Positions 29,486 through 49,586 of a stretch of 52,257 bases of DNA are shown here, piece by piece (position 1 is the stretch's first letter; the number at the start of each line of letters is the position of its first letter). The notes under the pieces are model-generated. The model saw only the letters and a program-made list of their open reading frames with translations, had not been told where the DNA came from and made no database searches. Source of the stretch: Eubacterium sp. GTDB lineage: Bacteria; Bacillota; Clostridia; Lachnospirales; Lachnospiraceae. A program made the translations under genes and the position numbers. The stretch is taken from the NCBI GenBank assembly GCA_017614395.1, contig JAGABX010000149.1:1-52257 (forward strand), written 5' to 3'.

Positions 29486-32284
29486 ATGAGTGCATCAAAG
29501 AATCAAACTCCGGCTGAGAGTCAGAGCAGGAGCGGCAGCGTTCTCGACGAATATTCAAACAAGGTATTTAAATTAGTCGTTCTGATCGTTCCGTTTTTCT
29601 TTATATGCGGCAATACTGCAATGACTGTACTGCATTACATGGGTTTATATCCCGCGGTACAAGACGTGGCCATGTGGTGTTCAAACGCAATAGATATTAT
29701 CTATGTCATCATAGCTGTCAGGCTTGTAAAAACCAGCTATGGGCCGGATGGGCGTTTAATCCCCAAAAAACTCATGACCGCAAAATATGTGCTTTTAGTC
29801 ATGGTTGTGCTTCAGTGGAATCTGAACAGCTATATCTGTCCGTTTTCGGATTTCTGGGCTTATGCTCCTCTGTTTGTCATCGTACAGTCCTTTTTCTTTG
29901 ACGTTAAAATGGTGCGGCTGTCAACGATTCTGATCGTTGTGTCAATGCTGATTTCGTGGTTCATCAACGGCGAAAATCTGTTACCTCCGGACAATGACTT
30001 TTTCTATCTCAACCTCGCGTTCCGCGGAATAGGGCTCACGTTTACTCTCCTATCCATAAACATTGTTACATGGTTTGGAAAAGTGTTCATAATCGAGGTT
30101 GTTCTGTCCCGTGAAAAAGAACGCGAGATGCGGGAAAAAAGCTACGAATATGAACGAGAGGCCCGTGTTAAATCGGATTTCCTGGCAAACATGTCACATG
30201 AGATCCGTACTCCCATGAATGCTGTTATAGGTATGGCTGAAATAGCCATGCGTGATGAACTGCCACCCAGTGCCATGGACTGTCTGGCACAAATCCAAAA
30301 ATCCGGCAGAAATCTCCTGAATATCATAAATGACATTCTTGACTACTCGAAAATAGAATCGGGAAAGATGGAGATAATTCAGGAAAGATATGAGCCATTC
30401 CGTGAACTGAAAGACATATCAAACATATTGGCTACGAGAGTCGGTGACAAAAACATCCTGCTCTATTTTGTCATTGATACAAAAACTCCGCGCTTATTGC
30501 TCGGTGATGCCATGCGAATCAGACAGATTCTCATAAATCTTGCAAATAACGCTATTAAATTTACGCAAAAAGGAAGTGTATGTGTAACTGTTGACTGCGA
30601 GTATGCAGATGAGGATACGGTAAATCTGACTTACCATATCAAGGATACCGGAATAGGAATCAAAAAAGATGATATGGACAAGCTTTTTGTCAGCTTCCAG
30701 CAGGTTGATTCAAGGAGAAACCGTTCGGTTGAGGGTACCGGACTCGGTCTCGCGATCTCCCAGCGTCTGGTTGAGGCTATGGGAGGTTCTATAGGGGTTG
30801 ATTCCGTATATGGACAGGGTTCTGATTTCTATTTCACAATCCCCCAGACTGTTTTGGACTCATCTGTCGAATTGGTTGTTAATGATGCAGATCGCAAGCG
30901 CGCCATTATTATGGATAAATCTCAGAAAAGAATCGATTTCTTTACAAAGGAGACTGAGAGGCTCGGTGTAAAAAGCGATGTGATAGACGATCTGAGCGAA
31001 TATCGGATGATCCCCGATTGTTCCGATTATATATTCTTCAATTACAGTAATTACGACAGCAATGTTTTGGAATTCCTCGAAAGAAATCCGGAAATTACCG
31101 GCGTTGTCATCATCGATTTTAATTATGATTACACGTCGGATCTGGGTAATCTCTATATACTGAGACGACCGGTTTCCACACGTAAAATTGTAAAAGTATT
31201 AAACGACGAGATGGACGATGTCGAAATGAAGAGCGATAATGAGGCCTATATCATTAACTTCACTGCACCGACCGCAAATATCCTGATTGTCGACGACAAC
31301 GCTATCAACATTACCATTGCAAAGGGTCTCCTCGCGCCGATCAAAATGAATATAGATTCTGCTGTCAGCGGTCCTGAGGCAATAAATAAAATTCGTAAAA
31401 AGAGCTATGATATCGTGCTGATGGATCATATGATGCCCGGAATGGATGGCGTGGATGCTACGAAGATCATTCGTGAAACCATACCGGGCACGGACGATTT
31501 GGTTATAATTGCCCTGTCAGCCAATGCCATAGAGGAGGCCAGAAATATGTTCCTCAAATCAGGAATGAACGACTTTGTGGCAAAACCGATTGAAATCAGG
31601 GAACTGGTAGAAAAGATCAAAATATGGCTCCCTGATGAAAAAATAGAATATGCGGACACATCTGATATCCCGGTTCAGGAGGAACTCCCCGATACCTTGG
31701 ACGAATTTGATATGGTGGATGCGGATCGCGCCGCCGAGGCATTGGGCTCGCCGGAACTGTTCCGGATGATAGCGGAGGAATATTTCAAATCAGGTCAGGA
31801 AACCTATGACAGTATCATGGAATCATATACAAATGAGGACTACAAAAACTATACGATAAGGGTACATGCATTAAAAAGCAGTTCCCGTCAGATAGGTGCT
31901 TTCGATCTCGGTGACATGGCGGAGGCTCTCGAGTTGGCAGGTAAAAGCAACGATACTGATTACATTAAATCCAATACCGATGACCTGCTCAGCAAGTTTA
32001 GGAGATTGTTGGATGATCTGGCACCGATATTCCCGGGCTCAGAAACAGGTACTGAGTCAGATGATCTCCCCTTGCTCTCTGATGACAGTTTGCATGAAAT
32101 ACTGAATATACTGAGAGCCGCCTGCGATGATATGGATATAGACAGTATGGAGGAGGTTGGAAAAGAACTGAAAAACTACGCATGGTCTCCGGAGGTCAGC
32201 GACTCCCTCACAAAACTGTGCGAGGCGATTGACAGGATGGAGATCATAACATGCGAAGAAATACTGGATGAAATCACAGAATAG
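29486..32284 (+). CDS. Hybrid histidine kinase with receiver, HPt and a C-terminal helical extension
   Basis: A 932-residue membrane kinase. Residues 25-205 hold about six membrane segments with no known sensor fold. HisKA has [16 protein letters not shown] (H238), and the ATPase domain has NLANNAIKFTQKG, DTGIGI and GTGLGLAI. A receiver-like but degenerate domain at about 465-575 precedes a true receiver (ILIVDDN, D647 in LMDHMMPGMDG, K700). An HPt domain carries H794 in RVHALKSSSRQIG. The last 75 residues form a helical region that resembles the end of the kinase at 38823-43820. GGGAGGG precedes the ATG at 29486. thyX starts 12 bases after the stop, so the two are co-transcribed. Confidence 0.9.
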   Translation: MSASKNQTPAESQSRSGSVLDEYSNKVFKLVVLIVPFFFICGNTAMTVLHYMGLYPAVQDVAMWCSNAIDIIYVIIAVRLVKTSYGPDGRLIPKKLMTAKYVLLVMVVLQWNLNSYICPFSDFWAYAPLFVIVQSFFFDVKMVRLSTILIVVSMLISWFINGENLLPPDNDFFYLNLAFRGIGLTFTLLSINIVTWFGKVFIIEVVLSREKEREMREKSYEYEREARVKSDFLANMSHEIRTPMNAVIGMAEIAMRDELPPSAMDCLAQIQKSGRNLLNIINDILDYSKIESGKMEIIQERYEPFRELKDISNILATRVGDKNILLYFVIDTKTPRLLLGDAMRIRQILINLANNAIKFTQKGSVCVTVDCEYADEDTVNLTYHIKDTGIGIKKDDMDKLFVSFQQVDSRRNRSVEGTGLGLAISQRLVEAMGGSIGVDSVYGQGSDFYFTIPQTVLDSSVELVVNDADRKRAIIMDKSQKRIDFFTKETERLGVKSDVIDDLSEYRMIPDCSDYIFFNYSNYDSNVLEFLERNPEITGVVIIDFNYDYTSDLGNLYILRRPVSTRKIVKVLNDEMDDVEMKSDNEAYIINFTAPTANILIVDDNAINITIAKGLLAPIKMNIDSAVSGPEAINKIRKKSYDIVLMDHMMPGMDGVDATKIIRETIPGTDDLVIIALSANAIEEARNMFLKSGMNDFVAKPIEIRELVEKIKIWLPDEKIEYADTSDIPVQEELPDTLDEFDMVDADRAAEALGSPELFRMIAEEYFKSGQETYDSIMESYTNEDYKNYTIRVHALKSSSRQIGAFDLGDMAEALELAGKSNDTDYIKSNTDDLLSKFRRLLDDLAPIFPGSETGTESDDLPLLSDDSLHEILNILRAACDDMDIDSMEEVGKELKNYAWSPEVSDSLTKLCEAIDRMEIITCEEILDEITE

Positions 32285-33026: not shown

Positions 33027-36000
33027 TTATCTGATCTTAACTCCTTTCGGAAGGCCGCTTGCCCTCACAAGCTTCGCAATTCTTTTGAACTGTTCCGTCG
33101 TTCCGGATATCCAGATAGTTGCTTTTTTTGAAATACCGTTGAAAGCGCCCTTTCCTATGGAAACCAGATTTGTTGACTTAATCGCTATATAGGTCAGTTT
33201 TGAATCGCCCTTAAATGCGTTGCTTCCGATTGACTGAACACCCTTGCCCATAGTCACGCTTGTCAGGTTTTTGTTCTTTTGAAAAGCACCCTTTCCGATG
33301 GTTTTAACACTGTTGCCTATACTTGCCTTTTTCAATTGAGGCATGGCTTTAAAAGCCATTTTTGCTATCGAGGTCACGGTGTAAACATCAGCGCCTGATT
33401 GTATTGTTTCCGGCAACTTCAGTGTTTGCCCCGACTTGCCTGTAATCGCAGACGCAGTAACCTCAACTTCATTACCTGTTATTACGGTATAGATTCTGGT
33501 AAAGATCGTCGATGTGAGTTTATCCTCTGTCGTTATCGTAGTCGCGCCCTCGACCGGTGTTATCCGCGTCACGCTGCTGTAATCACCATTTGATTCCGTT
33601 TTTGTTTCAGTCAGAACGCTCGCGCCGTCTGATCTCGTAGCCGTGATGGTTTCGGTAGATGATCCGTTAGCGTATTCCGTTTTTACGCTCACGCTGTTGG
33701 AGCCGTCATCCCCTATTGTCGTTGTAGTAGTTGTTGTCGACAGGACATTTCCGCCATCATCCCTCGTCTCCTCTGTCCTGACATCCGTGGTCGGAACCGG
33801 CTTGGCCGGAGTGTCACCTGTCGGTACAGGAGATATAACCGGGATCGGATCTGCAGTCGGAGCCGGAGCAGTTGTCGGCGCGGGAGCTAATGTCGGTATT
33901 GGTGATGATGTTGGCATGGCGCTCGGTTTCGGAGAACCACTTGGATCAGCCGGTTCTGAAGAACCCCCGCCGCCTGACGAACCGCCTCCGCCTGACGAGC
34001 CCCCGCCGCCTGAGGAACCACCTCCGCCTGAGGAGCCACCTCCGGATGAACCGCCTCCGCCTGATGAGGTAGGCTGAGGAGGTTGCGTCGGCGTACTCGT
34101 ATTTTCTGTCGTGAACGAGCCTTTTTTCAGTACGCTCTCATTTCCGGCTTTATCCACTGAAATTATTCCGTAATAGTAGGTTGTGTCTGCTGCAAGAGAG
34201 TTAAGAGTGAATACAGAGCCGGTCATAGCAGTTCCGTTTGTTTCAACATTATCCGCAGTTATCCGGGATTCATTTGTCGAATACCAGAGTTTTGTGCTCT
34301 CTACTCCGCTTCCGTTTTCGGTGATCGCAGAAATATTAACCTTTGCGGAAGAAGTCGTTTTATCCGTAATTGTAACATTGCCTATGACCGGTTTAGTTTT
34401 ATCGATTTTTATTGACAGAGTTTTGTTGGAACCCTTTGTAGTGCTTTCAGTGTCACCGGATGTTACAAGGCAGATGTTTCCGTTACCGTCTTTGATATAA
34501 AAAGTCTGTGATGTCTCACCCTCGGTTGCCACGGTAATTCCGTTCAACAATTCTGTTCCGGTGCTGCTGTACATCATATAACCGCTTGCCGCCGCGATCA
34601 CTACATCGTTTTTCTGCCATTTGGTCGGGTCAGCGTTAGCTCCGCCGGATTTAACGGTATACATTGTCGGCAGGAGGGGTTTTTGTTTTACCGTGAAGGC
34701 GACACCCGATTTTGTTCCCGTGAAATTCCCTGTTCCGGTTATCGTGATCGCCCCGTTCTCACCGACGCCTCCGCCGGAAGGCTGCGTGTAAGCGAGTGTA
34801 TAATCAGTATCCCCTGCCAATACATGGTTATTGTATGTCAGTGTTAATTGCGGGTAAGCAGGGGTTCCGGTATAATAGGATACCGGTACAGTACCGACAG
34901 TTACCCCATCAATATTTGCCTTCTCTATAGAAAAAGTTTTGCTCACGCTGCCGCGGTAATTCCCATTCGGCGAAGCCATCACAATGACCTTAGCCGTGTT
35001 TGTTCCGGCATTAGTATTGTTCTCATAATTAACCGTATATTGGCTCGAATCGATCGTGATGTCACTCAAAACAACCGATGTTACACCGGGTTTTATCTCA
35101 TCACCGCTGTAAACAAGTGATGTCGTGGAATCCAACGTAATAACAGCACCTGAAATACTCTGTTTATCCGTTGTTACCGTCAGACCATCACTTGAACCAG
35201 AGGCATCGGTGTTACCTGTTGATTTGAAGCGCTGATAAAAAACATAAACAGTATTTGGGGATAATCCCGTGAATGTCGGTGTCGAAACCCAGTTTGCCTG
35301 CAATGAACCATCCTGCTGTTTATAGTTATATTCGCAATCCCCAACCGCATTCAGGGTAACACTTGTTTCGGTTTTTGACGCCAATGTCGGTGCGGCAGGT
35401 GGATCTGAATTCGCTTTCTTTGTTATCACACCGGTATTGATCGACAAGGTTTGATCTGCAGCTATTCTGTAATTTCCGGTAGTTATTGCACCCGGCGTAA
35501 ATGTAATAGTCTTGTCTGTCCCGACATTTGCATTATCGTATACTGCTGTACCCGGTATTTCAACCTGCGTTGGCAAAACACCTGCCTGTGTACGTACAAC
35601 CGCATTAACGGCAGTTGTTCCGTCATAAACCTTTGAATATGAGCTTTCAGTGAACTCAAGATCAGACGAAACGAGTGTTTTAGGTTCAATAATAACCGAA
35701 ATAACATCTGAATCCACAGTAAAGGTCTCACCACCGGAGCGGGCCGTGAGAGTTACACTGTACCTGTATGTACCTGCAGGGAGGTCAGAACCCGGATCAT
35801 ATGTTGCCGATGTCGCATTGCTGATAGGAGTTTTATCTCCTGAGGCGCTTACCGAATACCACTGATATGAGAGCTCCGCCGTCTTTCCGTCCTTCAAAGA
35901 GGCAGTAGCGGTTAACTGCGATCCGCCTCCGTGGTAAGTTATTGTACCGTACATCGCAGAAGCGCTGAATCTGTCAACAGGACTTTCACCTGAACTGACA

Positions 36001-37907
36001 GTTACATTTAATTTGAGGGTTTTTCCGAATACATATCGAGGCACATATCCGGAATTCATATAATTTACATATGCATCAACCTCCAGTGTATATGAGCCCG
36101 GAGCAGATGGTCTGCCATCAAGCAGCGTGCTTCCGTTATACCATTTACACTCTATTCTGACATTACCCGGATCAACAGTCGTTGTTCCCTGCTTAAATGT
36201 AAAATTGCTTACCGTGGGATCTGTAACATTCCCTGATAAAAATGTTGTCGGATAATCATTATTAATTATCTCCGTTATCGGTCTCCTGAAAAAACTGATC
36301 GCATCCATTCCCGAAAGATTTGTTCCGATTGAGCTGAAGCTATTTTTTTGTTTAAAAGCTCCGTAAAAATACGACCTGTATTCAGAACATCCGGTTCCGG
36401 TGTGTGAATCATCGAGACCGAAAAGCACCTGAACAAATTCATTATCCGGACAATTCCTGATCACATCATTCATTTTTATCATAGCATTTTCCCACCCCGG
36501 ATCCGAAGCCGAGTCCGGTACATATGCAGAATACTTTTTATAATATGACTTGTCGGAATCCGAACCGATAGCAGAATTGCCAATGCTACTCGGAAGTGAA
36601 TATATCCACCCAAGGTTCCGTGTCAATATAGTATAAGATGTACCGGAATTAACCCCGGCGAAATGTTTTTTGCAGAAATCATTTTTCGGAATCAGATACC
36701 AGGAATACTCTGTATCTCCACGTGATGATTTATTGTTATTATTGTCATCCCACGTAGAGTCCAGATAATAATATGTCGATCCGTTGTCTAATGAAACAAG
36801 ATTCCATGCATGACCTCCTCCGTAATTCCCCTGTCCGTCAGTTGTTGAAAAACCCGTAACATAGACACTGGGGATATTGTAGTAATCTGTCAGAAACTCA
36901 AACGCTTTTGAATATCCTTCGCAGACAACCTTATTGTTTCCGTTGAATACGCCTATTATACTGTGCGCCTCTGTGGAGTCATCCGGTGTCGTTCCGTCCG
37001 GCAGGTATGCATAATCTACCTTTTTAATGATAGAATCGTGGATAGCCCGGACTTTTTCATAGGTATCATTACCGGCCGCCTCAACTGCCGGCGCAAAATA
37101 ATTCTCAATACCATTCACAATGGCCTGATCAATTGTATCTCTTGCAGCATCGGTAGCACAACCCGGATCACAGAACATGGAAACATCAGTCCAGCTGTTG
37201 TCATTATCCCGTAAATGAAAATAAGAAATGCCACTGGTCAGCCAATAGAACTGTGGGTTGTCCATGCGAAATGATGTAACCGCCTCGCAAGCATCAACCG
37301 CCGGTAGAAATGCCTTTGGATTTGTCTTATCCACCGGCGCAAAGCATATGATATTATTAGCAGCGCTAACATATGGGAACTCATCTGAACTTAACTGATC
37401 CAAATCCTTATTGCTCTTTGCAAATTTTTCCGCAAGCTCATACATATTATTGTATAATGAGCGTTGTTCGTCGGTTCTGAGCCGGTCATATCCGTAATGG
37501 GTTTTACCCTTTTCCAGGTACACATCATAAATGGTTGTTCCGCCTGATTTTTTTCGCGATCCGGTTTTTTTATCTTTTTGTATTTTTGCGTTTCGCTGAT
37601 CAGTTTTAGGTTTTACACCTGCAGACACTATATCCCCTGTTTCCTCCATGTCTCCTACAGGATAATCAACCCCTCCTATGGTCAGGGTATATCCGTCCTC
37701 GGAGAGTCCGTCCATTGAGAAATCAGTTTCCATGCCGGATCCTGAAATTTCCGAAACAGAAGTTTCCGGATCATTTGGTTCCGTTTTTGATTCCGACACT
37801 GCCCGGCTGATATTTGTTCCATGCGCAAAAGAAACTACCGGCGCATCTGCCAGTGTCAGACCGAATGCGATAACTATGGCGATTATTCTTCCAATTGTTT
37901 TTCTCAT
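33027..37907 (-). CDS. Secreted multidomain protein: transglutaminase-like, Ig/FN3-like, Gly-Ser linker, BspA-type LRR
   Basis: A 1626-residue exported protein. Residues 1-29 are a signal peptide (IIAIVIAFGLTLADA core). Residues 270-400 form a transglutaminase/protease-like core with a full triad: C329 in VVCEGYSKA, H366 in GGGHAWNL and D383 in YYLDSTWDD. Ig-like and YDG/FN3-like modules (about 540-1270) follow. A SSGGGG-type repeat linker then runs into a Pro/Ala/Thr-rich stretch. The C terminus (about 1510-1610) has BspA-type leucine-rich repeats (LKKASIGNSVKTIGKGAF, LTSVTMGKGVQSIGSNAF). No sortase signal or membrane anchor is seen. AAGGAGGG precedes the ATG. It follows the double-receiver gene by 45 bases. 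It could crosslink or cleave surface or host proteins; no target is known. Confidence 0.85.
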   Translation of the reverse strand: MRKTIGRIIAIVIAFGLTLADAPVVSFAHGTNISRAVSESKTEPNDPETSVSEISGSGMETDFSMDGLSEDGYTLTIGGVDYPVGDMEETGDIVSAGVKPKTDQRNAKIQKDKKTGSRKKSGGTTIYDVYLEKGKTHYGYDRLRTDEQRSLYNNMYELAEKFAKSNKDLDQLSSDEFPYVSAANNIICFAPVDKTNPKAFLPAVDACEAVTSFRMDNPQFYWLTSGISYFHLRDNDNSWTDVSMFCDPGCATDAARDTIDQAIVNGIENYFAPAVEAAGNDTYEKVRAIHDSIIKKVDYAYLPDGTTPDDSTEAHSIIGVFNGNNKVVCEGYSKAFEFLTDYYNIPSVYVTGFSTTDGQGNYGGGHAWNLVSLDNGSTYYYLDSTWDDNNNNKSSRGDTEYSWYLIPKNDFCKKHFAGVNSGTSYTILTRNLGWIYSLPSSIGNSAIGSDSDKSYYKKYSAYVPDSASDPGWENAMIKMNDVIRNCPDNEFVQVLFGLDDSHTGTGCSEYRSYFYGAFKQKNSFSSIGTNLSGMDAISFFRRPITEIINNDYPTTFLSGNVTDPTVSNFTFKQGTTTVDPGNVRIECKWYNGSTLLDGRPSAPGSYTLEVDAYVNYMNSGYVPRYVFGKTLKLNVTVSSGESPVDRFSASAMYGTITYHGGGSQLTATASLKDGKTAELSYQWYSVSASGDKTPISNATSATYDPGSDLPAGTYRYSVTLTARSGGETFTVDSDVISVIIEPKTLVSSDLEFTESSYSKVYDGTTAVNAVVRTQAGVLPTQVEIPGTAVYDNANVGTDKTITFTPGAITTGNYRIAADQTLSINTGVITKKANSDPPAAPTLASKTETSVTLNAVGDCEYNYKQQDGSLQANWVSTPTFTGLSPNTVYVFYQRFKSTGNTDASGSSDGLTVTTDKQSISGAVITLDSTTSLVYSGDEIKPGVTSVVLSDITIDSSQYTVNYENNTNAGTNTAKVIVMASPNGNYRGSVSKTFSIEKANIDGVTVGTVPVSYYTGTPAYPQLTLTYNNHVLAGDTDYTLAYTQPSGGGVGENGAITITGTGNFTGTKSGVAFTVKQKPLLPTMYTVKSGGANADPTKWQKNDVVIAAASGYMMYSSTGTELLNGITVATEGETSQTFYIKDGNGNICLVTSGDTESTTKGSNKTLSIKIDKTKPVIGNVTITDKTTSSAKVNISAITENGSGVESTKLWYSTNESRITADNVETNGTAMTGSVFTLNSLAADTTYYYGIISVDKAGNESVLKKGSFTTENTSTPTQPPQPTSSGGGGSSGGGSSGGGGSSGGGGSSGGGGSSGGGGSSEPADPSGSPKPSAMPTSSPIPTLAPAPTTAPAPTADPIPVISPVPTGDTPAKPVPTTDVRTEETRDDGGNVLSTTTTTTTIGDDGSNSVSVKTEYANGSSTETITATRSDGASVLTETKTESNGDYSSVTRITPVEGATTITTEDKLTSTIFTRIYTVITGNEVEVTASAITGKSGQTLKLPETIQSGADVYTVTSIAKMAFKAMPQLKKASIGNSVKTIGKGAFQKNKNLTSVTMGKGVQSIGSNAFKGDSKLTYIAIKSTNLVSIGKGAFNGISKKATIWISGTTEQFKRIAKLVRASGLPKGVKIR
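33955..34076 (-). repeat. Repeat encoding the Gly-Ser linker
   Basis: About seven units of 15-18 bases encode SSGGGG or SSGGG inside the secreted-protein gene. Such runs change length easily by slippage and give a flexible linker between the Ig-like part and the Pro-rich region. Confidence 0.7.
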
Positions 37908-37952: not shown

Positions 37953-38711
37953 TTAATTTTTGTCAAAATACTCTCTCAGCTTCGAATGCAGTTCATTGTT
38001 TGTTATGGATTTCAGCAAATAACCTGTCGGTTTGAGGGATAATACCTGCATGATACTGTCGCGGTCGCTCTTTCCGGTGAGAAACATGACCGGTATATCC
38101 CTGGTGGTAGCCTCACTGCGAAGCATTTCCAGTACCTGCGGCCCACTCGTCACGGGCATTTCGTAATCAAGCAGTATCAGGTCGACATTGTTTTTCGCAA
38201 GCCATGTGATCGCCTGTATTCCCGAATTTACCATAGATACCTTGTAACTGTCTTTGAGCCACTCCCTGATCATATGCATGTAATCGAGATCATCATCAAC
38301 TATCAGGATATTTCTTTTCATTGTGTCGATGGAAAACGATGTCATGAACTTTTTTATCTCCTCCAAAAACTCGTCCATGTTCAGCGGTCGTTCAAACCAC
38401 TTCCAGACATAGTCCTTGTTGATCAGTCGCAATGCCGAGTCATATTCGCTCTTGGAACCAATCATGCAGAGAACCTTTTCCTTGCCGCTGCATAATGATG
38501 CGAGATATGTCAGCAGATCACTGTCCGATATGATATTATCATCGAGATATACTATAAAAAGATCGGCTTTCTCCTCATATTTCGCAAGCTCGCCTATAGA
38601 CTTGCCGCCGAAGGTGGATTTTACATCAACGGTTCCGAGTTTCATCTCAAGACCGCGAACTATGAACGATTCCGCCTCAGCTACTATGACCACATGTCGT
38701 TTTACCCCCAT
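37953..38711 (-). CDS. Double-receiver response regulator without output domain
   Basis: A 252-residue protein of two receiver-like domains. The first (about 5-125) is degenerate: its acidic pocket is reduced to AEAES, though D57 in FIVYLDD could still be modified. The second (131-252) is complete: ILIVDDD, D182 in LILLDYEMP, T near 207 in MFLTGK, K near 227 in YLLKS. There is no DNA-binding or enzymatic domain, so it should act as a phosphate relay or by protein contact. The start at 38711 is chosen over a codon at 38765 because AGGAGGG precedes it. It lies 111 bases after the ECF-propeller kinase gene, whose HPt domain is a likely phosphate source. Confidence 0.85.
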   Translation of the reverse strand: MGVKRHVVIVAEAESFIVRGLEMKLGTVDVKSTFGGKSIGELAKYEEKADLFIVYLDDNIISDSDLLTYLASLCSGKEKVLCMIGSKSEYDSALRLINKDYVWKWFERPLNMDEFLEEIKKFMTSFSIDTMKRNILIVDDDLDYMHMIREWLKDSYKVSMVNSGIQAITWLAKNNVDLILLDYEMPVTSGPQVLEMLRSEATTRDIPVMFLTGKSDRDSIMQVLSLKPTGYLLKSITNNELHSKLREYFDKN

Positions 38712-38822
38712 ATTTATCCCTCCTGAACATGAATGTTTATCTGATTTAAACCATCCATTTTCCAAAACATTCGTACCAAAAACCGTAGTCTCTCCTACAT
38801 TATCTATATTTTACACTAAAAC

Positions 38823-41800
38823 CTACTTATTTTCAAGCAATTCCTGTATTTCGTCCCACTGCAGGGCATACAGTTTCTTGCCGATTTCCTGTATAACCTC
38901 GTCATCCTCCGGCGGTAGTTTAAACTCCTTCAATGAATTCAATACCATCTCCGCGAGATCATAATCCTCAGCAGCAGCAAATTCCTTTAATGAAGCATAT
39001 GCATCGGCTAACATCGCCGGATCAACCTCCTCGCGGGTGTCCTCCGTTTCTGACTCTCCGTCCCCGACCGCGTTCGGATTCAGAGGAGATAACGATTCCA
39101 TGAACGACTCATACATCTGTAAAAAGCCCTCAGTTTCGTTTTTGATCGTATCGATATCCTCCGCATGCCCGGCATCCTCGAGGTGTTGTGCCAGTGCATT
39201 TAACTCCATCGCTCCGATTATCCGGGCCGAACTTTTTAACGCATGAACCTTGATGGTGTAGTTTTTCCAATCCTCTTCTTCATAAAATCCGCGGATTTCA
39301 TCGGATTTTTCACGGATCGATTTGAAAAAGATTCCGAGCATTGACATATACATCTCTTCATCAGCATTGTTTTTCAAGCCCTCAGATGTATCTATCGACG
39401 GAAGGTCTGCGAGCCAATCCGGAAGGGTTGACTGAGACTTATTATCTCCATCAGAAACGGTTCCGTCTGATCCGGTATTTTCACTTTCCGCTATTCCGTT
39501 GCTGCCATTTCCTGCCGCCTTTTTCTCTGACGAATCCGTGCCTCCGTCCTTCGGTTTTTTCTCAGCCTTTTTCATCTTGGCTGGATTGATGTATTCGCGC
39601 ATCTTTTTCTCGAGTTTCAACCCATCAATCGGTTTTGCAAGATAGTCGTTGAAGCCCTCATTCAAATACATCTCCTTCATGCCGGATACCGCGTTTGCTG
39701 TCAGGGCAATTACCGGTGTCGTAACTCCGCGTTCGCGAAGCTCATGAAGTGTTTCTATTCCATCCATCTCCGGCATCATGTGATCGAGGAATATGACATC
39801 GAATTCTTTTTCTGCGGTAAGATTCAGGCATTCCCTGCCGCCTCCTGCTGTCGTTACCTGAACGCGGGATCGTTTCAGAAGTCCTGACGCAACTGCAAGA
39901 TTCATTTCGTTGTCATCTACAACAAGAATGTGAGCATCAGGGGCAATAAACAACGGCATTGACGGGTCTCCACCGCCAAGTTCGCCGCGTTTCGCTGCCA
40001 TTTTCCAGTCGACGCCAATCGGTTTCCCCGAAATGATATTTTGAGGGATCGTGAAATAGAATTCCGAGCCCTGGCCGTAAACACTCTCACAATGCAATTC
40101 GCCACCCATCATCTCTATCATCTGTCTGGCTATGTCGAGTCCCAAACCGGTTCCCTGAATATTGCGGTTCTTTTTCTCGTCCAAACGCTCGAAAGGTTTG
40201 AACAGCTTTTCCATATCCTCTTCCCTGATGCCTATGCCGGTATCCTTGACTCTAAACTCGAGCATTACCTGGCTGTCTCCGGTATTCGGTCTCTCGTTTT
40301 CATCAGATTCAGGTATTTCCTCTATCCCGGGCAATCCGATCGTTCCGGCCGGGAGCGCGGTTATTTCCTGTTTATTCATTCTGAAGCTGACTTCACCGTG
40401 TGGCGTATATTTCACTGCATTGGATAAAAGATTCAAAAGTATCTGCCGTAACCGCACGTCATCACCATACAGCACCGATGGAATCATATCGTCAACATAT
40501 GTATGGAATACAAGATGTTTCTCGTCACATCGAACCTTAACCATAGCAGTGAGCGATGCCAAGAATTCACCCATATCGTATTTTTCAGCAACTAAATTCA
40601 TCTTGCCGGATTCGATCTTGGACAGATCGAGAATATCATTCACAATTGAAAGCAGGCTGTTTGATGCCACCCGAATATCGAGAGCCCTGTCACGAACCTC
40701 GTCAGATACATCGTCGCGCAGAATCAATTCGTCCATTCCCATGATTGCATTGATAGGAGTACGAATCTCATGGGACATGTTCGCGAGAAACCTTGATTTT
40801 GCCTGGTTGGCGTTTTCAGCCTCCTCCTTGGCACGGGCAATTTCGACATACTGGTCATTAATGATGGCCATACTTTTGAACCGCGTCAAAAGCCAAACAA
40901 TGAATACTACAAAAAGGCTGCCCACGCACGCCAAATATATCTTGAAATACGGTCTTTCATAGAGCTGTGAATTTTTTTCAACGGAGAACGATGCCTCCTT
41001 GAGCACCGTGTCGTTGACACCGTCAAAGACCTGAACCCTCAACTTGTATTTCCCGTATGGGAGATTTGTAAACGTTAACGGTACCATCTCATCCTGATGA
41101 CAGACAAGAGCGCCAGTATCCGAGCCTTCAAGCCAGATTTTTACCAGCGGATTAGACAGTGAATAGTTTAAGAAAGCCACGTTGATGGCTATTTTTTTCG
41201 CAGCCTTCGGAATAACAAACGATCCGTCTGAATACGCGTAAATCTTTTCATCGTCCGCTGTTATATCGTTGATTCGAATAGCATAGTCATTATCATTTTT
41301 ATCATAAGTTTTTGTTGACACACGTCGGACGCCGTCAATACAGCACAGATACAGATCGTCATCCATGACCGCGTTCCACGCGTTAGCGGTCAATGAAGTG
41401 TAGAACCCCCGTGTTCGGTTCAACAGGGCATAATTATATCCTTCTGTATCCGCGAGCAAATCCTTTGTATTTACTATAAAGATTCCGGCGCTCGAGCTGA
41501 TCCAGGCAGTTCCGTCATCCGAAAGGTAAACATCATAGTTATTTGTATAAGGAAAGTTTTTCAGTCGATGAATCCGTTTTCCGTTATCATGGTATATGGC
41601 ATTACTGGTTATGTATAAAAAGCCGTCCTCGCAGGGAATTATCCTAAGTACAACGAGCGAAGCAAGCCCCTGGTGAATTCCGATATGACGGGATATCCGG
41701 CTGCCGCTTATCTCATATATTCCGGCACCGTCTGTAGCTACCATTATCGTGCCGTCTACCTTTTCATACATGGCCAGGACCTGTGGCGTGGCAAATCCAT

Positions 41801-43820
41801 CCTTCTCACCAATCGTTGCAACAACATGGCCATGACGTATCATGGACAGCCCCATGTTCGATGCGGCAAATATTGTTCCGTCCTGCTTTCTTTCAATAGC
41901 GAGGCGGAAACGGCCTCCGAGTGTACCATTCGTTTCATTGAAGGTTTTAATCGAACCATCCGGAAAAACACAAACCAACCCATCTGTACCATAGGTTGAC
42001 AGCCAAATCTTGCCGGTGGAATCCTGCATGATATGACGTACACGAACCCCCCTAAGTCTTTCCACATACCGGTAGTTTCGCTTTTTATAGTCTCTCCTGT
42101 CCAATACTGCCAGTCCGTCATCCATCCCGATCAGTATTTCCTTGTCCGTCACGAGTTGGGCGTTTACCACGCTCTCCTCCAGACCGGAATTGACAAACAC
42201 ATCCTCAAACGGAGTTCTGGCATATTTCATTATCCCCTGCTTGTTTGAAGCGAACCAGATATTATCCTGATAATCTGTTGTTACATCACTGATCGAGTTC
42301 TCAAATTCTGATTCCGGAATAGTGATTCGTCCACGGTCATCTATGAATCCCAATCCATTCTCTCCACAAAAGTATACTCGTTTTTCGGTCTTATCAAAAA
42401 GCAGTTTGTTAAAATACGCCACATCCTTCGTAGTGTATGTTTTGATGCACTCTATAGCGTTATTTTCGTATTTTACGCAATCTATACGATTCTGACCCGT
42501 TCCGATCATGTATTCCCTGTCTGTCTGTCCGCGTCCGATTGCTGTGTAGTAAAGTCCTTCCTCATTTGCAGCTAAAAAAACCGCCTTGACCTTTTTATCC
42601 TTGACAAAAAAGACCATGCCGTCATTTGATACAGCACCGATGATGCCGTCGGTACCCATGACCATGGAACGTACATATCCGGTCACGCGGGAATCATGTA
42701 TCGTCGTTATTTTCCCTCTCCTGTCAATAACGGCTAAATCCACCGTAGTTCCGACATACACATTGCCACGTTCATCCTCACATATGGAGCGGATTGAATC
42801 AGCGCCGAGCCCGTCATGGGAAGTATAGAACTTGATTTCTCGTGTTTTGGTATCGTAGCAGGCAATTCCACTCTCATTTGTCCCGATCCAGAGCTTCCCC
42901 CTCGAATCAACAAATAACTGCATGACTGTATTGATTTTCTCATCCGGATAAACACGTACGAATTTCGTCCCCTCGTATCGATAGAGTCCGGAGTAGGAAC
43001 CCGCCCAGAGATAACCGTCAGGCGTTTGGGCTATTGCGTTAATTTCCGAGGTTTCCAGTCCGGCCTCCACCCCGTACAGTATCGCTTCGTACTCAGACGT
43101 AATTCCTGTAGCGTATGATGTTTTACTATACAGCAAGCTAACCGATGTTGCGGTTATGAGTGTAAAGAATAAAACAGGAAGCCAAACCTCCCGCTCATGT
43201 TTCTTTTTCTTTGGTTTTGTTTCTATGGATTCGTCGTCCTCCTGATCATCTCTTTTCAAATGAATTTTTGAAAACAGCCTTCGGGTTCCTTCAACCGAAA
43301 GAGCCGCAATGAGCAGGCTGAATACTTTGTCAGGCATCTCAACAAAAAACTCGGAAAGCACGGTGTTAAGAATGGGTACATCAATATTTTGTGAAAGCAT
43401 GTCAAACAGGGCGTCACCCCAGGCATTCCCTGTGTATCCGTCCTTCAACACGATATTAACCGGTGAAGTGGCGGCAACTGCCACAAGACCGGTGAGTGCA
43501 GCAGCAGTCAGAATATGGAACGCATCCTTTTTTTCTCTCTCTCGTGGATAGACATGGCCTATAGTCAGACCTATTGCTATGCTGATAAGCATATACCAAG
43601 CGGAAAAAATGCCAAACAGGCCCCGGATCAAACTGCATACGGCACCCGTGCATGCACCCGTCACCGGACCGATAACGATCGCAACTATGAATGTTCCTAT
43701 TGAATCCAACCAAACAGGCGCAGACAGGCGTGTTGCAATCATGCCACCTATAAGGTTTATTACTATACACAGCAGGATAACGCCTGTCTGATGTATTCGT
43801 ATTCTCACTTTTGATTGCAT
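38823..43820 (-). CDS. Hybrid histidine kinase with ECF S-component-like membrane domain and Reg_prop beta-propeller
   Basis: A 1665-residue sensor. Residues 8-180 resemble the membrane S component of ECF vitamin transporters ([20 protein letters not shown], then [17 protein letters not shown]). A membrane segment at 213-234 is followed by repeats of a two-component regulator propeller (about 245-845; for example [31 protein letters not shown]), then a Y_Y_Y domain (about 870-948). A membrane segment at 959-981 leads to HisKA (H1017), ATPase (GTGLGLDI), a receiver (D1346) and HPt (H1526), with a helical C-terminal extension. Ends and topology imply the propeller lies outside the cell. The ATG at 43820 has GAGAGGG upstream. 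It follows the repeat-protein gene by 66 bases. Confidence 0.87.
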
Positions 43821-43886: not shown

Positions 43887-46800
43887 TTAAACGGGCTGAT
43901 CCAGGAAATACATCAACTTGTCCGTATCAAGCGAAACCTCTGCGGAATCGCACTCATTATACGCTTCCATATCTGCCGTGCCGGCGTAATAATTCTCCGG
44001 ATGGCCTGTGTTCACAGCCTCATTATATGCCACATCATCCTGATCTGACATCATCGACAGATATGTCGTATTTTCCTTGAGTGTACCCTGAGTGTCCACA
44101 TAACTGTAGGTAATCTGCATCCTGTAACTCATGGACATCCCCGTGTCGTCCTTGACCGCTACTGAAATAACTTTGAAATTGGCGCTGTCCGGCAGCAGCG
44201 TGCGGATATTACTGATTGCCCGCAATGCTGTTACTTCCATTTCGTTCATAGTTTTGAACTCTTCCAATCGAGCACCGTCAACAAATTGTCTCTCCTGCAT
44301 GGTCAACCGGTCATATTCCTGTTCGATAGCGAGAACGTCCGCGAATGATGAATCCTCAGTCAGTGAATCGATTCGTGTCGCGATATCACGAACCGTTTTC
44401 AGATCAACATCCTTGTACTTTTCGAGAAGTTCGGCATTTTCAACCTCGTTCTGCTTGTCATACGGTACAGCGTTGTAGTCCTGAAGCGCTTTGTTAAAAT
44501 CCTCCTGAGTAGGTATGCCCGATTCCTCGAGTTTGCTGATTGAACTGTTCGCTGTTTCTATAACTCCGGCCGTTTCAGAATAACCAATTATCTCTTTGAT
44601 TGTAAAAACTCCTACAACCGCTATTGCTATCGCTACAATCACAATAGCGATAATCAGTACTGTCCGCGAGCCGGTTTTACTCTTGACTTTTTCATCAGCA
44701 ACCGGTGTCACTTCTTCCGCGTCATTTTCCCGTGACGCCTCGGTCAGCTCAGGTTGGGGCTTGGCTGCCTCCTGAGTTATTTGTCCTGACGGCGTTTCCT
44801 CCGCCGCCCCAGGGTTCCGAAAGGGCCGCGCCTTATCTTTATTATCAGGGTTCGGATTCATGGTCAATTCCGTCTGAGGACCCTCCGGGAACTCGACAGG
44901 CGGCACATCCTTGTACGGATTTTCAACCGGATCCGGCATTGGAGATTCCGGAATAGTTGCATCAGGGAAATCCCAATCGTCCAAATCATTGATCAGAGCA
45001 TCCGCAGACGGTTCATCCGGAAATACTATCTGAGGAATGTCACCGTCATAAACCACGGCAGGAGACTCTCCTTCATCCGGCAGACCATCATCATAGACGG
45101 ATTCAGCGTCGTTTTCATCGTCATCGGTTCCGATGTCTATCCGGTTTTGCTGTTCCTCATCGCCGTCATCGGTTCCGACGTCTATCCGGTTCTGTTGTTC
45201 CTCTTCATCGTCATCGGTTCCGACGTCTATCCGGTTCTGTTGTTCCTCATCGTCGTCATCGGTTCCGACGTCTATCCGGTTCTGTTGTTCCTCATCGTCG
45301 TCATCGGTTCCGATGTCTATCCGGTTCTGTTGTTCCTCATCGTCGTCATCGGTTCCGATGTCTATCCGGTTCTGTTGTTCCTCATCGTCGTATGTGGGCT
45401 CACCACCTATTCGGTTCTCCCGACTTTCCTCATCATTTTCAGCGAGCACCGTCGAAACCTTGTTTTCCTCGAGAGCTTTTTCCTCTTTACCTTCGGTGTC
45501 AACCTTTGCGTCAGCGAAAGCCCTGCTCTCAGTTTCGACTACGCCGAGACTCTCGTCCTCCCCAATCTCAGCCTCTATTTTATTTTCATCCGCAATGTCG
45601 GGCGGTTTTTCCTCTGAAGCAACAATATCTTCCTTATTGTAGAGGTGTTTTTCCACCATCTCCTCAGGCAGTACCTCCTCTGTGGCAGATACGGGTGGAA
45701 TTTCAGAGGCAACCCATGCATCTTCCGGCTCTTCAACCGTGGGTTCATCTGTTTCATCGGCCTCAGGCTCTGTCAGTTCGGAAATTGTTTCAGTCACTGA
45801 TCCCTCTGTTTCATCTGTCTCATCGGCCTCAGGCTCTGTCAGTTCGGAAATTGTTTCAGTCACTGATCCCTCTGTTTCATCTGTTTCATCTGTCTCATCG
45901 GCCTCAAGTTCTGCCGCTGCCTCCTGATATTTTTCCAACAGATCAGACGGCAACTCTACGTCCGGCATTTCATCAACTGTTTCATTTGGGATTTCATCCG
46001 GTTGTTCATCCAAAATTACTTTCGGTTCAGTATCCTCATCCAATGGTTTTATAGGCTTTTGCAATGGAATATTCGCTGATTTTCCATCCTCATCGGGATC
46101 AATCAGGTGAAACTCCTCAATCGGACGTTTACCCTCCTGGGCTTTCTTTTTTTTCTTTCCGAAAAGACCTCCCAGCAGACCTTTTTTCTCCTTACCCTTT
46201 TCCTGTTTGCCTTTTCCCTCTTTTTCCTCTGTTGGAATGTCGAGGAACTCAACGGTCGACTCATTCGGTAACGCATCTAATGTCTGTGGCTCACCAAATC
46301 CGGGCATTTCCAATGCGTCTTCTAATTTGATGACCTGTCCGTCATCCTCGTCCTCCGATTGCTCCTCCTCTGACTCGGGCTCAGAAAGATCGGATGTAAG
46401 ATCATCCATCTCAATCTGTGCAAAATCATCACTGGAAATCTCCGACTCAGTCTCAAAATCTGACGAAGGGCGGTCAAACGAAAGCCCTAAGTCTGCTATT
46501 ACGTTTGATTCCTCTTCTTCTCCTGAGGAAATACCGATTACGACATTCGTTTCATCTTCCGGTTCATCAGGAATATTGATTGCAACAGCAGACTCATCTT
46601 CCGGCTCATCAGGAATATTGATTGCAACAGCAGACTCTTCTTCCGGTTCCTCCGGAATGCTGATTGCTGCTTCAGGCTCTTCTTCCGGTTCATCAGGAAT
46701 GCTGATTGCTGCTTCAGGCTCTTCTTCCGGCTCATCAGGAATGCTGATTGCTGCTTTAGGCTCTTCTTCCGGCTCATCAGGAATGCTGATTGCTGCTTCA

Positions 46801-47846
46801 GGCTCTTCTTCCGGTTCATCAGAAATCACTGTCTCTGCATATTGTCCCGCTGTTATATCAACTATAGGTTCAGATATATCTGATACATAATCTGTCGAAT
46901 AACCATCTGAGTATGTTTCAGTTCCTGAAGCACCGCTCCTGTATGATGCGGCATCCCATGTCCCGACTAATCTGGTTCCGGAGGTTTCAGATTTATCTTC
47001 AGTCTGCAAAGACCAATCCTCCGGTACGTCCTCTCGCGTCGGAACAATCAACCTGTCTGACATCATCGGTTCATTCTGCGGTTGCTCCTGAGCCACCGGG
47101 TCACCTGACAAAATACTGTCAGATACCTGTTCTTCTAACACGGCGGAGGCTTCTTCCGGCGTTTCTGTTACCGTCGTTTCCTCTATTGGTTCCTCAATAT
47201 GGGTTTCTTCTTCCTCGGCTGCCTTGCGGACTGCTTCCTCCTCAGCCGCCTTGCGCGCTACTTCCTCCTCGGCTGCCTTGCGGGCCGCTTCCTCCTCAGC
47301 CGCCTTGCGCGCTACTTCCTCCTCGGCTGCCTTGCGGGCCGCTTCTTCCTCAGCCGCCTTTCGGGCCGCTTCTTCCTCGGCTGCCTTGCGGGCTGCTTCC
47401 TCCTCAGCCGCCTTGCGGGCTGCTTCTTCCTCGGCTGCCTTGCGGGCTGCTTCTTCCTCGGCTGCCTTGCGGGCTGCTTCCTCCTCGGCTGCCTTGCGGG
47501 CTGCTTCTTCCTCAGCCGCCTTGCGAGCCGCTTCTTCCTCGGCTGCCTTGCGGGCTGCTTCCTCCTCGGCTGCCTTGCGGGCCTCCTCCGGATGCTCTTT
47601 GTCATATAGCCCCTGCAGATAATCCTTCCACATTATACGCGAAAGATCTGCGATGCTGGCGCCACAAACCCGGCAGTGCATCTGTGAAATCAGATTCATG
47701 ACACCGCAAGAACACCACCACTTTGCCTTATCAGTGGCCGGCATATATAACATGTCGGCATCCCTGTCAGTCAGTCTGCGGTATTCCCTGCGATAAATCT
47801 CCGCCAGATCCTTGCCCAGCGCCTCTTCGGCCGTTTTCAATTCCAT
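43887..47846 (-). CDS. Large zinc-ribbon, repeat-rich, single-span membrane protein of unknown function
   Basis: A 1319-residue protein I cannot assign to a family. Residues 1-85 hold a small zinc ribbon (C45, C47, C58, C61: WWCSCGV and CRVCG). About 14 copies of a RKAAEEEAA-type unit (90-215) predict a highly charged long helix. Acidic repeats follow: [14 protein letters not shown] (about seven), a basic patch ([20 protein letters not shown]), a 22-residue unit twice, and [15 protein letters not shown] (six). One membrane segment (about 1064-1088, [19 protein letters not shown]) precedes a 230-residue C-terminal domain, presumably outside. There is no signal peptide, so the N terminus should be cytoplasmic. 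The start at 47846 has GGGAG twelve bases upstream. It lies between xseB and the ECF-propeller kinase. Confidence 0.82.
45121..45390 (-). repeat. Six 45-base tandem repeats
   Basis: Six nearly identical 45-base units encode EEQQNRID(I/V)GTDDDD. Unit-to-unit changes are mostly single bases, which indicates recent expansion or gene conversion. Confidence 0.9.
45754..45885 (-). repeat. Two 66-base tandem repeats
   Basis: Two 66-base units encode the Thr/Glu-rich 22-residue segment [20 protein letters not shown] plus two residues. They are virtually identical, and a third partial copy follows. Confidence 0.85.
46556..46822 (-). repeat. About seven 42-base tandem repeats
   Basis: Units of 42 bases encode [14 protein letters not shown] and variants ([14 protein letters not shown]). 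The copies grade from near-identical to diverged along the array. Confidence 0.85.
47214..47594 (-). repeat. About fourteen 27-base tandem repeats
   Basis: Units of 27 bases encode RKAAEEEAA. Two alternating DNA versions (with Ala codons read on the plus strand as gccgcc or gctgcc) suggest that pairs of units were duplicated together. The coding pattern and absence of spacers rule out CRISPR. Confidence 0.9.
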
Positions 47847-47927
47847 GTTTTTTTCAATCTCCCTGCTATTGATTTCTAACACTCCTGCAGTTAAAAATCT
47901 GTCACTGCATCCCTATGCTCTTCGGCA

Positions 47928-48194: not shown

Positions 48195-49586
48195 CTATTC
48201 TTCTGTATCACTTTTCGAACGGATTATTTCCTCGACTGTTGCCGAAATGTCTCCGTCATGAATTCGTACCATCATCTTCTGTCCGGGTTTAATATCATCA
48301 ACCGTCATTATCGGTTTATCATCATGTGTAACATATCCGAATCCGTTCAATAGCTTCGCAGTTGGCGAAAGGCCATGAAGTGTTGTTACCAAAAGCTCAT
48401 AGCGATGCTTTTTCATATCAAAAAGTCTGCGAATGTTCGTTTCCAGATTCTGCTCCGCGCGTTCCAGCCTGACCTTGTTTCTCTCCAGGACAGCCGCCGG
48501 ATTATATCGTTCCAGTGTTTCCCTGCAAATTCTGAGCTGTTGCTTTTTTGAAATAATAATATTGTTCATGCCGGTGCGAATCGAGCCTTCCAAAGACCTG
48601 AGTTGAAGAATATCCGACATGACATCCGGCAACACGCCCTGCGCGGCATAGGTCGGTGTTGAAAATCTCTTGTCAGCGACGAGATCTATAAGCGTCACAT
48701 CGCGCTCATGACCGACGCCGGTAACTATCGGCGTATTGGCATGATATACCGCGCGAACAACGTCCTCATCATCAAAAGGACTCAAATCCTCTCTGGAACC
48801 ACCGCCTCGACTGACAACGATAACATCATACCCTCCGGCATCCATGTATTTGATTCCACGTATGATTGACGCCGCAGCAGTATCTCCCTGTACAGTAACA
48901 GGATAAAGCACTAACTGCACAAATGGATTCCTGTCATGCGCAATACGAAGAATGTCGCGTAACGCATCCGCATGTTCCGAAGTAATAATACCGACTCTTC
49001 GCGGATACTTTGGGATTGGTTTTTTGTGTTCTTCTGAAAAAAGTCCCTCAGCCTGAAGCTTATCCTTGAGGAGGTTGAGTTTTGCCTGATAGTCCCCCTC
49101 ACCCATGTCTCGGATTCTCGCAACACGCAGGCTGGCTTTCCCTTGTTTGCCGTAGTATTGCAGATTACCGACTATGCCAACCTCCTGGCCGTTTTCCAAA
49201 TCAAAATCCAGAATAGCCTCTGCGGTATTCGGCCATATCGTACACGAAATAACCGCCTTGTCGTCCTTTATTTCAAAAAACCAATAACCCTTCCACGGAC
49301 TGAGATTCAGGATTTCTCCTCTGACACGAACCATACGAAATCTGTCATCATTGTCAAAGCACTCCTCAATCATATTACTGATTTCGCTGACAGTCATGTA
49401 TGAAGGATCCTGTGTTTCTGATGGTTCCGAACCTCCAACAGAAGGATTCAAAGCCGGGGAATACCATTTTGCAAAAAGATCCAACTGATCATCCTCGCAA
49501 TACCAGAATTTCCCTGTCGGATTCCATCTGGCACCGAGTTCCTTCGCCTCATCCTTCTCAAGAAACGGAACATTTAAACGAATCAT
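48195..49586 (-). CDS. xseA: Exodeoxyribonuclease VII large subunit with N-terminal DUF5710-like domain
   Basis: A 463-residue XseA, the catalytic subunit of a nuclease that degrades single-stranded DNA from both ends. Residues 1-44 (LNVPFLEKDEAKELGARWNP, then GKFWYCEDD) match the DUF5710 pattern, a short domain otherwise common in primase and mobilisation proteins. The normal enzyme follows: OB-fold domain (about 62-165; EILNLSPWKGYWFFEIKD), catalytic domain (RVGIITSEHADALRDI, VVSRGGGSREDLSPF, TGVGHERDVTLIDLVAD) and C-terminal coiled region ending in LNGFGYVTHDDKPI. The ATG has GGAGGGG upstream and an upstream promoter, so the extra domain is really part of the gene. Confidence 0.94.
   Translation of the reverse strand: MIRLNVPFLEKDEAKELGARWNPTGKFWYCEDDQLDLFAKWYSPALNPSVGGSEPSETQDPSYMTVSEISNMIEECFDNDDRFRMVRVRGEILNLSPWKGYWFFEIKDDKAVISCTIWPNTAEAILDFDLENGQEVGIVGNLQYYGKQGKASLRVARIRDMGEGDYQAKLNLLKDKLQAEGLFSEEHKKPIPKYPRRVGIITSEHADALRDILRIAHDRNPFVQLVLYPVTVQGDTAAASIIRGIKYMDAGGYDVIVVSRGGGSREDLSPFDDEDVVRAVYHANTPIVTGVGHERDVTLIDLVADKRFSTPTYAAQGVLPDVMSDILQLRSLEGSIRTGMNNIIISKKQQLRICRETLERYNPAAVLERNKVRLERAEQNLETNIRRLFDMKKHRYELLVTTLHGLSPTAKLLNGFGYVTHDDKPIMTVDDIKPGQKMMVRIHDGDISATVEEIIRSKSDTEE

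What the first reader, a model, noticed from the sequence alone, without database searches (positions are those of the whole stretch)
38823..43820. ECF S-component-like domain fused to a propeller-type hybrid kinase
The first 180 residues look like a vitamin-transporter S component, followed by a large Reg_prop propeller, Y_Y_Y domain, kinase core, receiver and HPt. Propeller hybrid sensors are best known from Bacteroidota glycan sensing. Adding an ECF-like membrane module to one in a Clostridia-type genome is unusual and suggests sensing of a small ligand in the membrane together with an extracellular ligand.
Basis: partly seen in the sequence, partly recalled or inferred. Interest (0 to 1): 0.75.

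Follow-up and report, generated by a model that had tools for sequence, protein, structure and literature searches.

The report
Transporter-like receptor fused to propeller kinase
A gut-type bacterium carries a sensor protein whose membrane part is a close cousin of a nutrient-importer subunit, apparently changed at its motor-docking helix while keeping its presumed binding motif, which makes it a good test case for how transporters turn into receptors.

Summary
ORF 38823-43820(-) encodes 1665 aa: S-component-like membrane domain (about 12-180), TM7, Reg_prop propeller, Y_Y_Y, TM8, HisKA, HATPase, receiver, HPt, with the phospho-residues in place. The N-terminal domain groups with one ECF S-component family (NCBIfam ECF_S_CD3073, 1.1e-20, below its equivalog cut-off), not with MASE or 5TMR-LYT domains. 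It is no oddity: 74 of 80 named relatives put the same S-propeller-Y_Y_Y input on histidine kinase (47), GGDEF (18) or HD-GYP (9) outputs. Close stand-alone relatives lie in ECF operons (23 of 23), 12 of 23 beside a uridine-phosphorylase-like gene, against 0 of 88 fused loci. Fused copies keep N22, D39, T43, N122, TGNxWGD and D164/K165, but the transporters' P16xxxG20 pair, aligned with the AxxxA docking motif of known S components, survives as a small pair in only 8 of 89. Best reading: a transporter subunit turned into a small-molecule, perhaps nucleoside, receptor. Ligand, signalling and loss of transport are inferred. That receptors share the S-component fold was published in 2024; this propeller-coupled case I did not find in nine literature searches.

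The parts
38823..43820 (-). S-component/propeller hybrid histidine kinase, 1665 aa
   Evidence: open frame, Pfam
43281..43787 (-). S-component-like membrane domain, about residues 12-180
   Evidence: NCBIfam ECF_S_CD3073 at residues 17-178; alignment with stand-alone S components; profile-profile comparison
43125..43190 (-). TM7, residues 211-232, behind a lysine-rich linker
   Evidence: hydropathy
41181..43103 (-). Reg_prop propeller, about residues 240-880 (bounds set by me)
   Evidence: Pfam Reg_prop; homologous over its length in relatives
40980..41153 (-). Y_Y_Y domain, residues 890-947
   Evidence: Pfam, below cut-off
40857..40952 (-). TM8, within residues 957-988
   Evidence: hydropathy
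40605..40802 (-). HisKA, residues 1007-1072, H1017
   Evidence: Pfam, motif position
40041..40466 (-). HATPase_c, residues 1119-1260
   Evidence: Pfam
39603..39929 (-). receiver domain, residues 1298-1406, D1346
   Evidence: Pfam, motif position
39135..39341 (-). HPt domain, residues 1494-1562, H1526
   Evidence: Pfam, motif position
37953..38765 (-). two-receiver protein (first half degenerate by eye, second half a Pfam receiver); likely phosphorelay partner
   Evidence: Pfam; homologue within 800 bp downstream in 20 of 37 kinase-type relatives

Best explanation
The N-terminal domain is an ECF-transporter S component turned into a receptor module. It would bind a small molecule from outside in the pocket that it shares with stand-alone CD3073-type S components, most likely a nucleoside such as uridine or something related. 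It would no longer dock productively on EcfT and so would not import. Binding would be passed through helix 6, the lysine-rich linker and TM7 to the extracellular propeller and Y_Y_Y and through TM8 to the kinase, and the phosphate would go from the receiver and HPt to the neighbouring two-receiver protein. Shown by sequence: domain order, kinship to S components of ECF operons, the changed helix-1 pair, the retained shared motif, intact phospho-residues, the conserved neighbour. Inferred: topology, ligand, lack of transport, signal path, partner transfer, and any ligand of the propeller.
For: ECF_S_CD3073 hit, in 81 of 81 members. Profile-profile 100%, E=9.5e-60, with 23 stand-alone relatives; EcfT control 0.2%. 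23 of 23 close stand-alone loci have EcfT and EcfA beside S, 12 of 23 a uridine-phosphorylase-like gene; of 88 fused loci 0 have the phosphorylase and 1 an EcfT. 23 positions are shared at 85% or more by 23 transporter and 89 fused rows, among them N22, D39, T43, N122, T130, N132, W134, D136, D164, K165. Positions 16 and 20, which align with both alanines of AxxxA in FolT and in 4hzu_S (alignments), are P and G in 23 of 23 transporters; both are small (A, G, S, P or C) in 8 of 89 fused rows, and L and V in the window. The S-HD-GYP receptors keep only part of the motif set. The own genome (94.7% complete) shows no stand-alone member.
Against: No ligand, structure or phenotype is known. Position 16 of the transporters is proline, so their pair is PxxxG and not AxxxA; without proline and cysteine (A, G or S alone) position 16 is small in 0 of 23 transporters and 12 of 89 fused rows. 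A second pair, G25xxxA29, is kept in both groups (G25 22 of 23 and 82 of 89; A29 23 of 23, and A or S in 81 of 89), and position 24 is G, A or S in 41 of 89 fused rows and 0 of 23 transporters, so loss of docking is not certain. Eight fused rows keep a small pair at 16/20. 11 of 23 transporter loci lack the phosphorylase and no fused locus lies by a nucleoside gene that I tested, so the ligand rests on the transporters' context alone. The 92% match to FolT rests on 5 rows, and the transporters themselves give only 7% with FolT and 31% with PF07155. One S-less kinase (L186) lies inside the S-bearing group, so the domain can be lost.
Confidence: 0.5

Rival explanations
1. The propeller is the only sensor (of a glycan or other extracellular ligand, as in Bacteroidota hybrid systems) and the S-like domain is a membrane anchor or dimerisation module without a ligand of its own.
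For: Of 84 propeller rows in 200 same-family genomes 52 have no S domain in the same frame; L186 lost it.
Against: The polar set with TGNxWGD is as strictly kept in fused rows as in transporters, which an anchor would not need. I recognised no polysaccharide-utilisation genes beside the window gene, though not every neighbour was scanned.
Confidence: 0.25
2. The fused domain still works as an S component: it shares the cell's general EcfT-EcfA module and reports on uptake, as a transporter that also signals.
For: The own genome has one EcfT next to ATPase-like genes in its ribosomal-protein cluster. G25xxxA29 is kept in both groups and 8 of 89 fused rows keep a small pair at 16/20.
Against: The 16/20 pair is lost in 81 of 89 rows, the window included, and positions conserved in transporters such as Y23, K26, N62, T69, D70, W126 and S153 are not conserved in fused rows. 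87 of 88 fused loci have no EcfT beside them, though a shared module need not be adjacent.
Confidence: 0.15
3. The domain is simply a 5TMR-LYT receptor domain of the LytS/YpdA kind.
For: PF07694 hits weakly, passes its cut-off in one translated search (28.9 bits), and is hit by 32 of 81 members at 0.01.
Against: Only 7% profile-profile probability with 16 clear 5TMR domains. The three 5TMR members printed have N-x-R where this family has W-x-D, and the window gene starts about 11 residues before helix 1 (21 with the TTG start), too short for the extra helix H0.
Confidence: 0.05

Closest known systems
CD3073 family putative ECF transporter S component (NCBIfam NF045596)
   Same: Whole-domain sequence similarity; shared motif set including TGNxWGD and DK
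   Different: Below the equivalog cut-off; fused to a propeller kinase; helix-1 pair changed; no EcfT-EcfA operon; known members are small proteins without outputs
5TMR-LYT sensor kinases (LytS, YpdA, BtsS) with the S-component fold, PMC11109136
   Same: S-component-like membrane domain used as receptor; large residues at the presumed docking positions of helix 1
   Different: No helix H0, W-x-D in place of N-x-R, an extracellular propeller follows, and direct sequence kinship to a transporter family
Bacteroidota propeller hybrid two-component systems
   Same: Reg_prop propeller, Y_Y_Y, TM, HisKA, HATPase, receiver
   Different: Extra S domain and TM7 in front, HPt at the end, no DNA-binding domain found
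CbrA-type transporter-kinase fusions (recalled, and mentioned in PMC11109136)
   Same: A transporter-type membrane domain in front of a histidine kinase
   Different: A complete secondary transporter there; here a subunit that cannot pump alone

Membership tests
ECF S component (CD3073 type) | sequence match over the whole domain | tested here: met
   1.1e-20 over residues 17-178, but 74 bits is under the equivalog cut-off of 180; the stand-alone L046 and L048 proteins also stay under it (95.6 and 89.8)
ECF S component (CD3073 type) | six-helix S-component fold | not testable with these tools
ECF S component (CD3073 type) | helix-1 small-xxx-small motif for EcfT | tested here: not met
   window has L16 and V20; 8 of 89 fused rows and 23 of 23 transporters (PxxxG) have a small pair; G25xxxA29 is kept in both
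ECF S component (CD3073 type) | EcfT and EcfA in the operon | tested here: not met
   none recognised beside the window gene; 1 of 88 fused loci has EcfT
5TMR-LYT receptor | N-x-R motif before the second helix | tested here: not met
   W37-x-D39 at that place, judged by eye against L159, L160, L161
5TMR-LYT receptor | extra N-terminal helix H0 | tested here: not met
   start codon about 11 residues before helix 1, 21 with the TTG start
5TMR-LYT receptor | profile similarity | tested here: inconclusive
   below the PF07694 cut-off in hmmscan, above it in a translated search, 7% by hhalign
Bacteroidota-type propeller hybrid system | propeller, Y_Y_Y, HisKA, HATPase, receiver in one chain | tested here: met
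   with Y_Y_Y below cut-off
Bacteroidota-type propeller hybrid system | C-terminal DNA-binding domain (recalled) | tested here: not met
   receiver is followed by HPt; no DNA-binding family hit at E 0.1
Bacteroidota-type propeller hybrid system | polysaccharide-utilisation locus around it (recalled) | tested here: inconclusive
   none recognised among the neighbours scanned or looked at; not all were scanned

The most novel reading that the evidence does not exclude
A transporter-to-receptor conversion caught at sequence level: one fusion turned the S component of a nucleoside ECF importer into a nucleoside receptor joined to an extracellular propeller, and this input module was then passed among histidine kinase, GGDEF and HD-GYP outputs, giving rumen Lachnospiraceae a large family of extracellular nucleoside sensors that feed c-di-GMP and phosphorelay signalling.
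Probability: 0.3. Interest if true: 0.8.

Novelty: new variant of a known kind. Interest (0 to 1): 0.6.

Why it matters
[quoted passage not shown] Here receptor and transporter copies of one S-component family are still about a third identical (27 to 44% to the window over the 20-row alignment), the presumed docking pair differs sharply and the motif set is kept, so the step from transporter to receptor can be tested by swapping domains and residues. It also suggests a ligand class for an unassigned S-component family and for a large set of orphan rumen sensors.

Tried and rejected
MASE-type or another unrelated sensor domain: no such hit on the window's N-terminal part (a few members of the family hit holin or 7TM models weakly). 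5TMR-LYT: set aside. Glycan sensing by context: I recognised no polysaccharide-utilisation genes among the near neighbours, but not all were scanned; by eye a glycogen-phosphorylase-like frame lies 17 kb away at 19490-21961.

Literature (nine searches, open PMC papers only): S component + ECF transporter + histidine kinase + fused, 3 papers; CD3073, 0; S-component fold/transceptor/5TMR, 1; Reg_prop + Lachnospiraceae + histidine kinase, 0; ECF transporter + uridine + S component, 1; two component regulator propeller + Clostridia, 0; energy-coupling factor, nucleoside, S-component, uridine phosphorylase (three of four), 4; Reg_prop + Firmicutes, 1; energy-coupling factor + histidine kinase + beta-propeller, 1. 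I read PMC11109136 in part: outline and abstract, parts 1 to 3 of 8 and a word search (no 'propeller', 'Reg_prop' or 'Lachnospir' in its main text). All other papers were seen as search listing only.

Weak points of the counts. The 88 fused loci (89 rows with the window) hold at least six places fetched twice from two collections (L035/L133, L036/L065, L037/L085, L038/L095, L039/L106, L040/L111, judged by equal contig lengths), and two cut frames (L083, L087). Of 27 stand-alone loci tested, four more distant ones were left out of the 23: L147 (EcfT, EcfA and phosphorylase hits), L148 (EcfT, EcfA), L149 (EcfA), L054 (none). One search has 37 S rows with frames under 320 aa; only part of them was fetched. 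The phosphorylase hit in L140 covers about 42 residues; L130 and L139 have short upstream flanks. In one search I left out a second fragment of one frame (G052:C10). The 80 named loci are the best 80 of 491, so they lean towards the window's own type. In one search at most 8 candidates per genome were scored. The trees are quick searches, the S tree on 54 of 89 fused rows, with a weak root. Fisher values ignore relatedness.

Full report
WHAT IS THERE. The frame 38823-43820(-) encodes 1665 aa. Pfam finds Reg_prop repeats, Y_Y_Y (below cut-off), HisKA, HATPase_c, Response_reg and Hpt in that order. Hydropathy shows a hydrophobic N-terminal block (5-90 and 99-125), TM7 at 211-232 after a lysine-rich linker, and TM8 within 957-988; the phospho-residues are H1017, D1346 and H1526. 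The likely topology, inferred, is a six-helix domain with both ends inside, TM7 outwards, propeller and Y_Y_Y outside, TM8 inwards, kinase inside.

THE N-TERMINAL DOMAIN. Pfam is undecided between ECF_trnsprt, ECF-ribofla_trS and 5TM-5TMR_LYT, all below cut-off; in one translated search the window passes the 5TMR cut-off with 28.9 bits. NCBIfam is clearer: ECF_S_CD3073, residues 17-178, 1.1e-20, 74 bits with a cut-off of 180; 81 of 81 aligned members hit it at 1e-3, while 67 of 81 hit ECF_trnsprt, 34 ECF-ribofla_trS and 32 5TM-5TMR_LYT at 0.01. A profile of the 81 touches five PDB sequences, all weakly: four S components (5d3m 0.044, 5d0y 0.18, 4hzu_S 0.35, 3p5n 0.49) and one enzyme (0.46). 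Profile-profile comparison of the 89 fused rows gives 100% (E=9.5e-60) with 23 stand-alone CD3073-type proteins, 92% with FolT (5 rows), 48% with PF07155 S components (15 rows), 7% with 5TMR-LYT (16 rows) and 0.2% with EcfT (8 rows) as a membrane-protein control. Against this, the stand-alone proteins alone give only 7% with FolT and 31% with PF07155. Three 5TMR domains have N-x-R where this family has W-x-D, and the window gene has no room for the extra helix H0 of 5TMR receptors (feature from PMC11109136). No structure was obtained.

HOW COMMON. Of 200 same-family genomes (own included) 67 have an N-terminal match at 1e-3. The propeller finds 84 rows in 53 of the 200; 32 rows in 31 genomes carry the S domain in the same frame, 52 do not, two of these probably because a frame is broken or cut. 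A scan of named genomes found 491 encoded relatives and kept the best 80, by their titles mostly rumen Lachnospiraceae, Butyrivibrio and Eubacterium, with some Oscillospiraceae and Clostridiales. Of the 80, 47 are S-propeller-kinase (28 of them with receiver and HPt detected), 18 end in GGDEF, 9 in HD-GYP, 1 is cut before its output, 5 have no propeller (4 stand-alone, 1 cut). On the S-domain tree the outputs need at least 5 changes (52 labelled rows, 2 unlabelled). In 398 genomes drawn from the phylum, 38 with a match at 1e-10, the three frames over 1000 aa are all in the window's family, while frames of about 200 aa occur in many families.

THE TRANSPORTER SIDE. In 23 of 23 close stand-alone loci S lies next to EcfT and EcfA, and in 12 of 23 a uridine-phosphorylase-like gene lies beside them; among 88 fused loci none has the phosphorylase and one (L146) has an EcfT, in a ribosomal-protein cluster. 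The L046 phosphorylase scores 191 bits on TIGR01718, below the cut-off of 280. These loci come from several family codes and from Neobacillus. A dedicated nucleoside importer is therefore the best guess for the transporters; it is context evidence only, and 11 of 23 loci lack the gene. L043 lies next to what look like riboflavin-synthesis genes (by eye).

WHAT WAS KEPT AND LOST. On 23 transporter and 89 fused rows N22, G25, P35, D39, G42, T43, G51, P52, G55, G59, G88, P120, N122, G128, T130, G131, N132, W134, G135, D136, P163, D164 and K165 are shared at 85% or more in both. Conserved only in transporters are, among others, P16, G20, Y23, K26, N62, T69, D70, W126, S153, L179 and P180; the transporters' C-terminal tail has no counterpart in fused rows. 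Positions 16 and 20 align with both alanines of AxxxA in FolT and in 4hzu_S (alignments). PMC11109136 says that AXXXA in helix 1 binds EcfT and that 5TMR receptors have large residues there. Counting A, G, S, P and C as small, the pair is small in 23 of 23 transporters and 8 of 89 fused rows, the window having L and V. But the transporters have PxxxG and not AxxxA, a second pair G25xxxA29 is kept in both groups, and position 24 is small in 41 of 89 fused rows and in no transporter. Loss of docking is thus likely, not shown.

A SECOND S-DOMAIN RECEPTOR. A ~715-aa class with an S-like N-terminus and HD-GYP forms its own clade (SH-aLRT 99, 11 rows). Pfam sees only the HD domain in the two proteins scanned; the S assignment rests and on N22, D39, G42, T43, D164 and K165 in 11 of 11, whereas N122 and TGNxWGD are not kept, so another ligand is likely. 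In 10 genomes the S hit of such a frame lies 1.7 to 2.0 kb before an S-less propeller kinase of ~1400 aa; in 9 of the 10 fetched loci both genes are seen as neighbours, in L182 my ORF filter hid the first. S domain and propeller kinase thus occur together also when not fused.

PARTNERS. Of kinase-type fused relatives with a complete frame and at least 1 kb downstream, 20 of 37 have a homologue of the window's 37953-38765 protein within 800 bp, 10 of 37 an HD-GYP within 2.7 kb, 25 of 37 either; for GGDEF (16) and HD-GYP (9) fusions it is none. This fits transfer from HPt to the two-receiver protein in the kinase type, and c-di-GMP as the output of the others.

HISTORY. On the S tree fused rows are one side of a branch (98), transporters another (81), and the two together are set off from S-HD-GYP and other S rows (98); the root is weak. 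On a propeller tree of 67 rows the S-less proteins need two changes: one group of 11 (support 100) and L186 inside S-bearing rows, best read as one loss. The direction from transporter to receptor is suggested by the wider spread of the transporters, not proven.

VERDICT. New here are the sequence-level link to one ECF operon family, the changed helix-1 pair with the motif set kept, the guess of a nucleoside-like ligand, and the S-propeller input on three kinds of outputs. I did not find these in the nine searches listed under Tried and rejected, but that receptors share the S-component fold is published.

Noticed in passing
window 2752-5643 (-): A second transporter-kinase fusion in the same window: amino acid permease domain (PF13520, 1.1e-22) in front of HisKA, HATPase_c and receiver, 963 aa.
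   Followed up: partly
window 29462-32284 (+): Another hybrid kinase, 940 aa, with HisKA, HATPase_c, receiver and a weak HPt hit.
   Followed up: no
window 43887-47882 (-): Upstream neighbour, 1331 aa, rich in repeats ([13 protein letters not shown] and [14 protein letters not shown]); by eye similar low-complexity or C-terminal sequences lie upstream of the same-genus copies L191 and L192.
   Followed up: no
window 33027-37907 (-): 1626-aa surface-type protein with transglutaminase core, YDG and BspA-type leucine-rich repeats.
   Followed up: no
window 48195-49586 (-): Exonuclease VII large subunit with a DUF5710 domain fused at its N-terminus.
   Followed up: no
L059, L060, L061, L064: About 2000-aa relatives with an additional kinase core in front of the S domain, so two kinase cores on one chain (Pfam for L059).
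   Followed up: partly
L157 1-2186 (own genome C33) and L150 2115-4250 (own genome C52): Own-genome paralogues: an S-less propeller protein cut by the contig end beside gyrase-like genes, and an S-HD-GYP protein; the two are on different contigs.
   Followed up: partly
L054 4961-5524, L149 4941-5513, L148 4918-5526, L052 5630-6220: More distant stand-alone S components, each near a small protein containing a V-C-H-C/S-H-C-like 'SHCILN' start (by eye); substrate unknown.
   Followed up: no
L186 1981-6234: S-less propeller protein, 1417 aa, nested among S-bearing ones, beside a divergent gene that looks like a sodium symporter (by eye).
   Followed up: no
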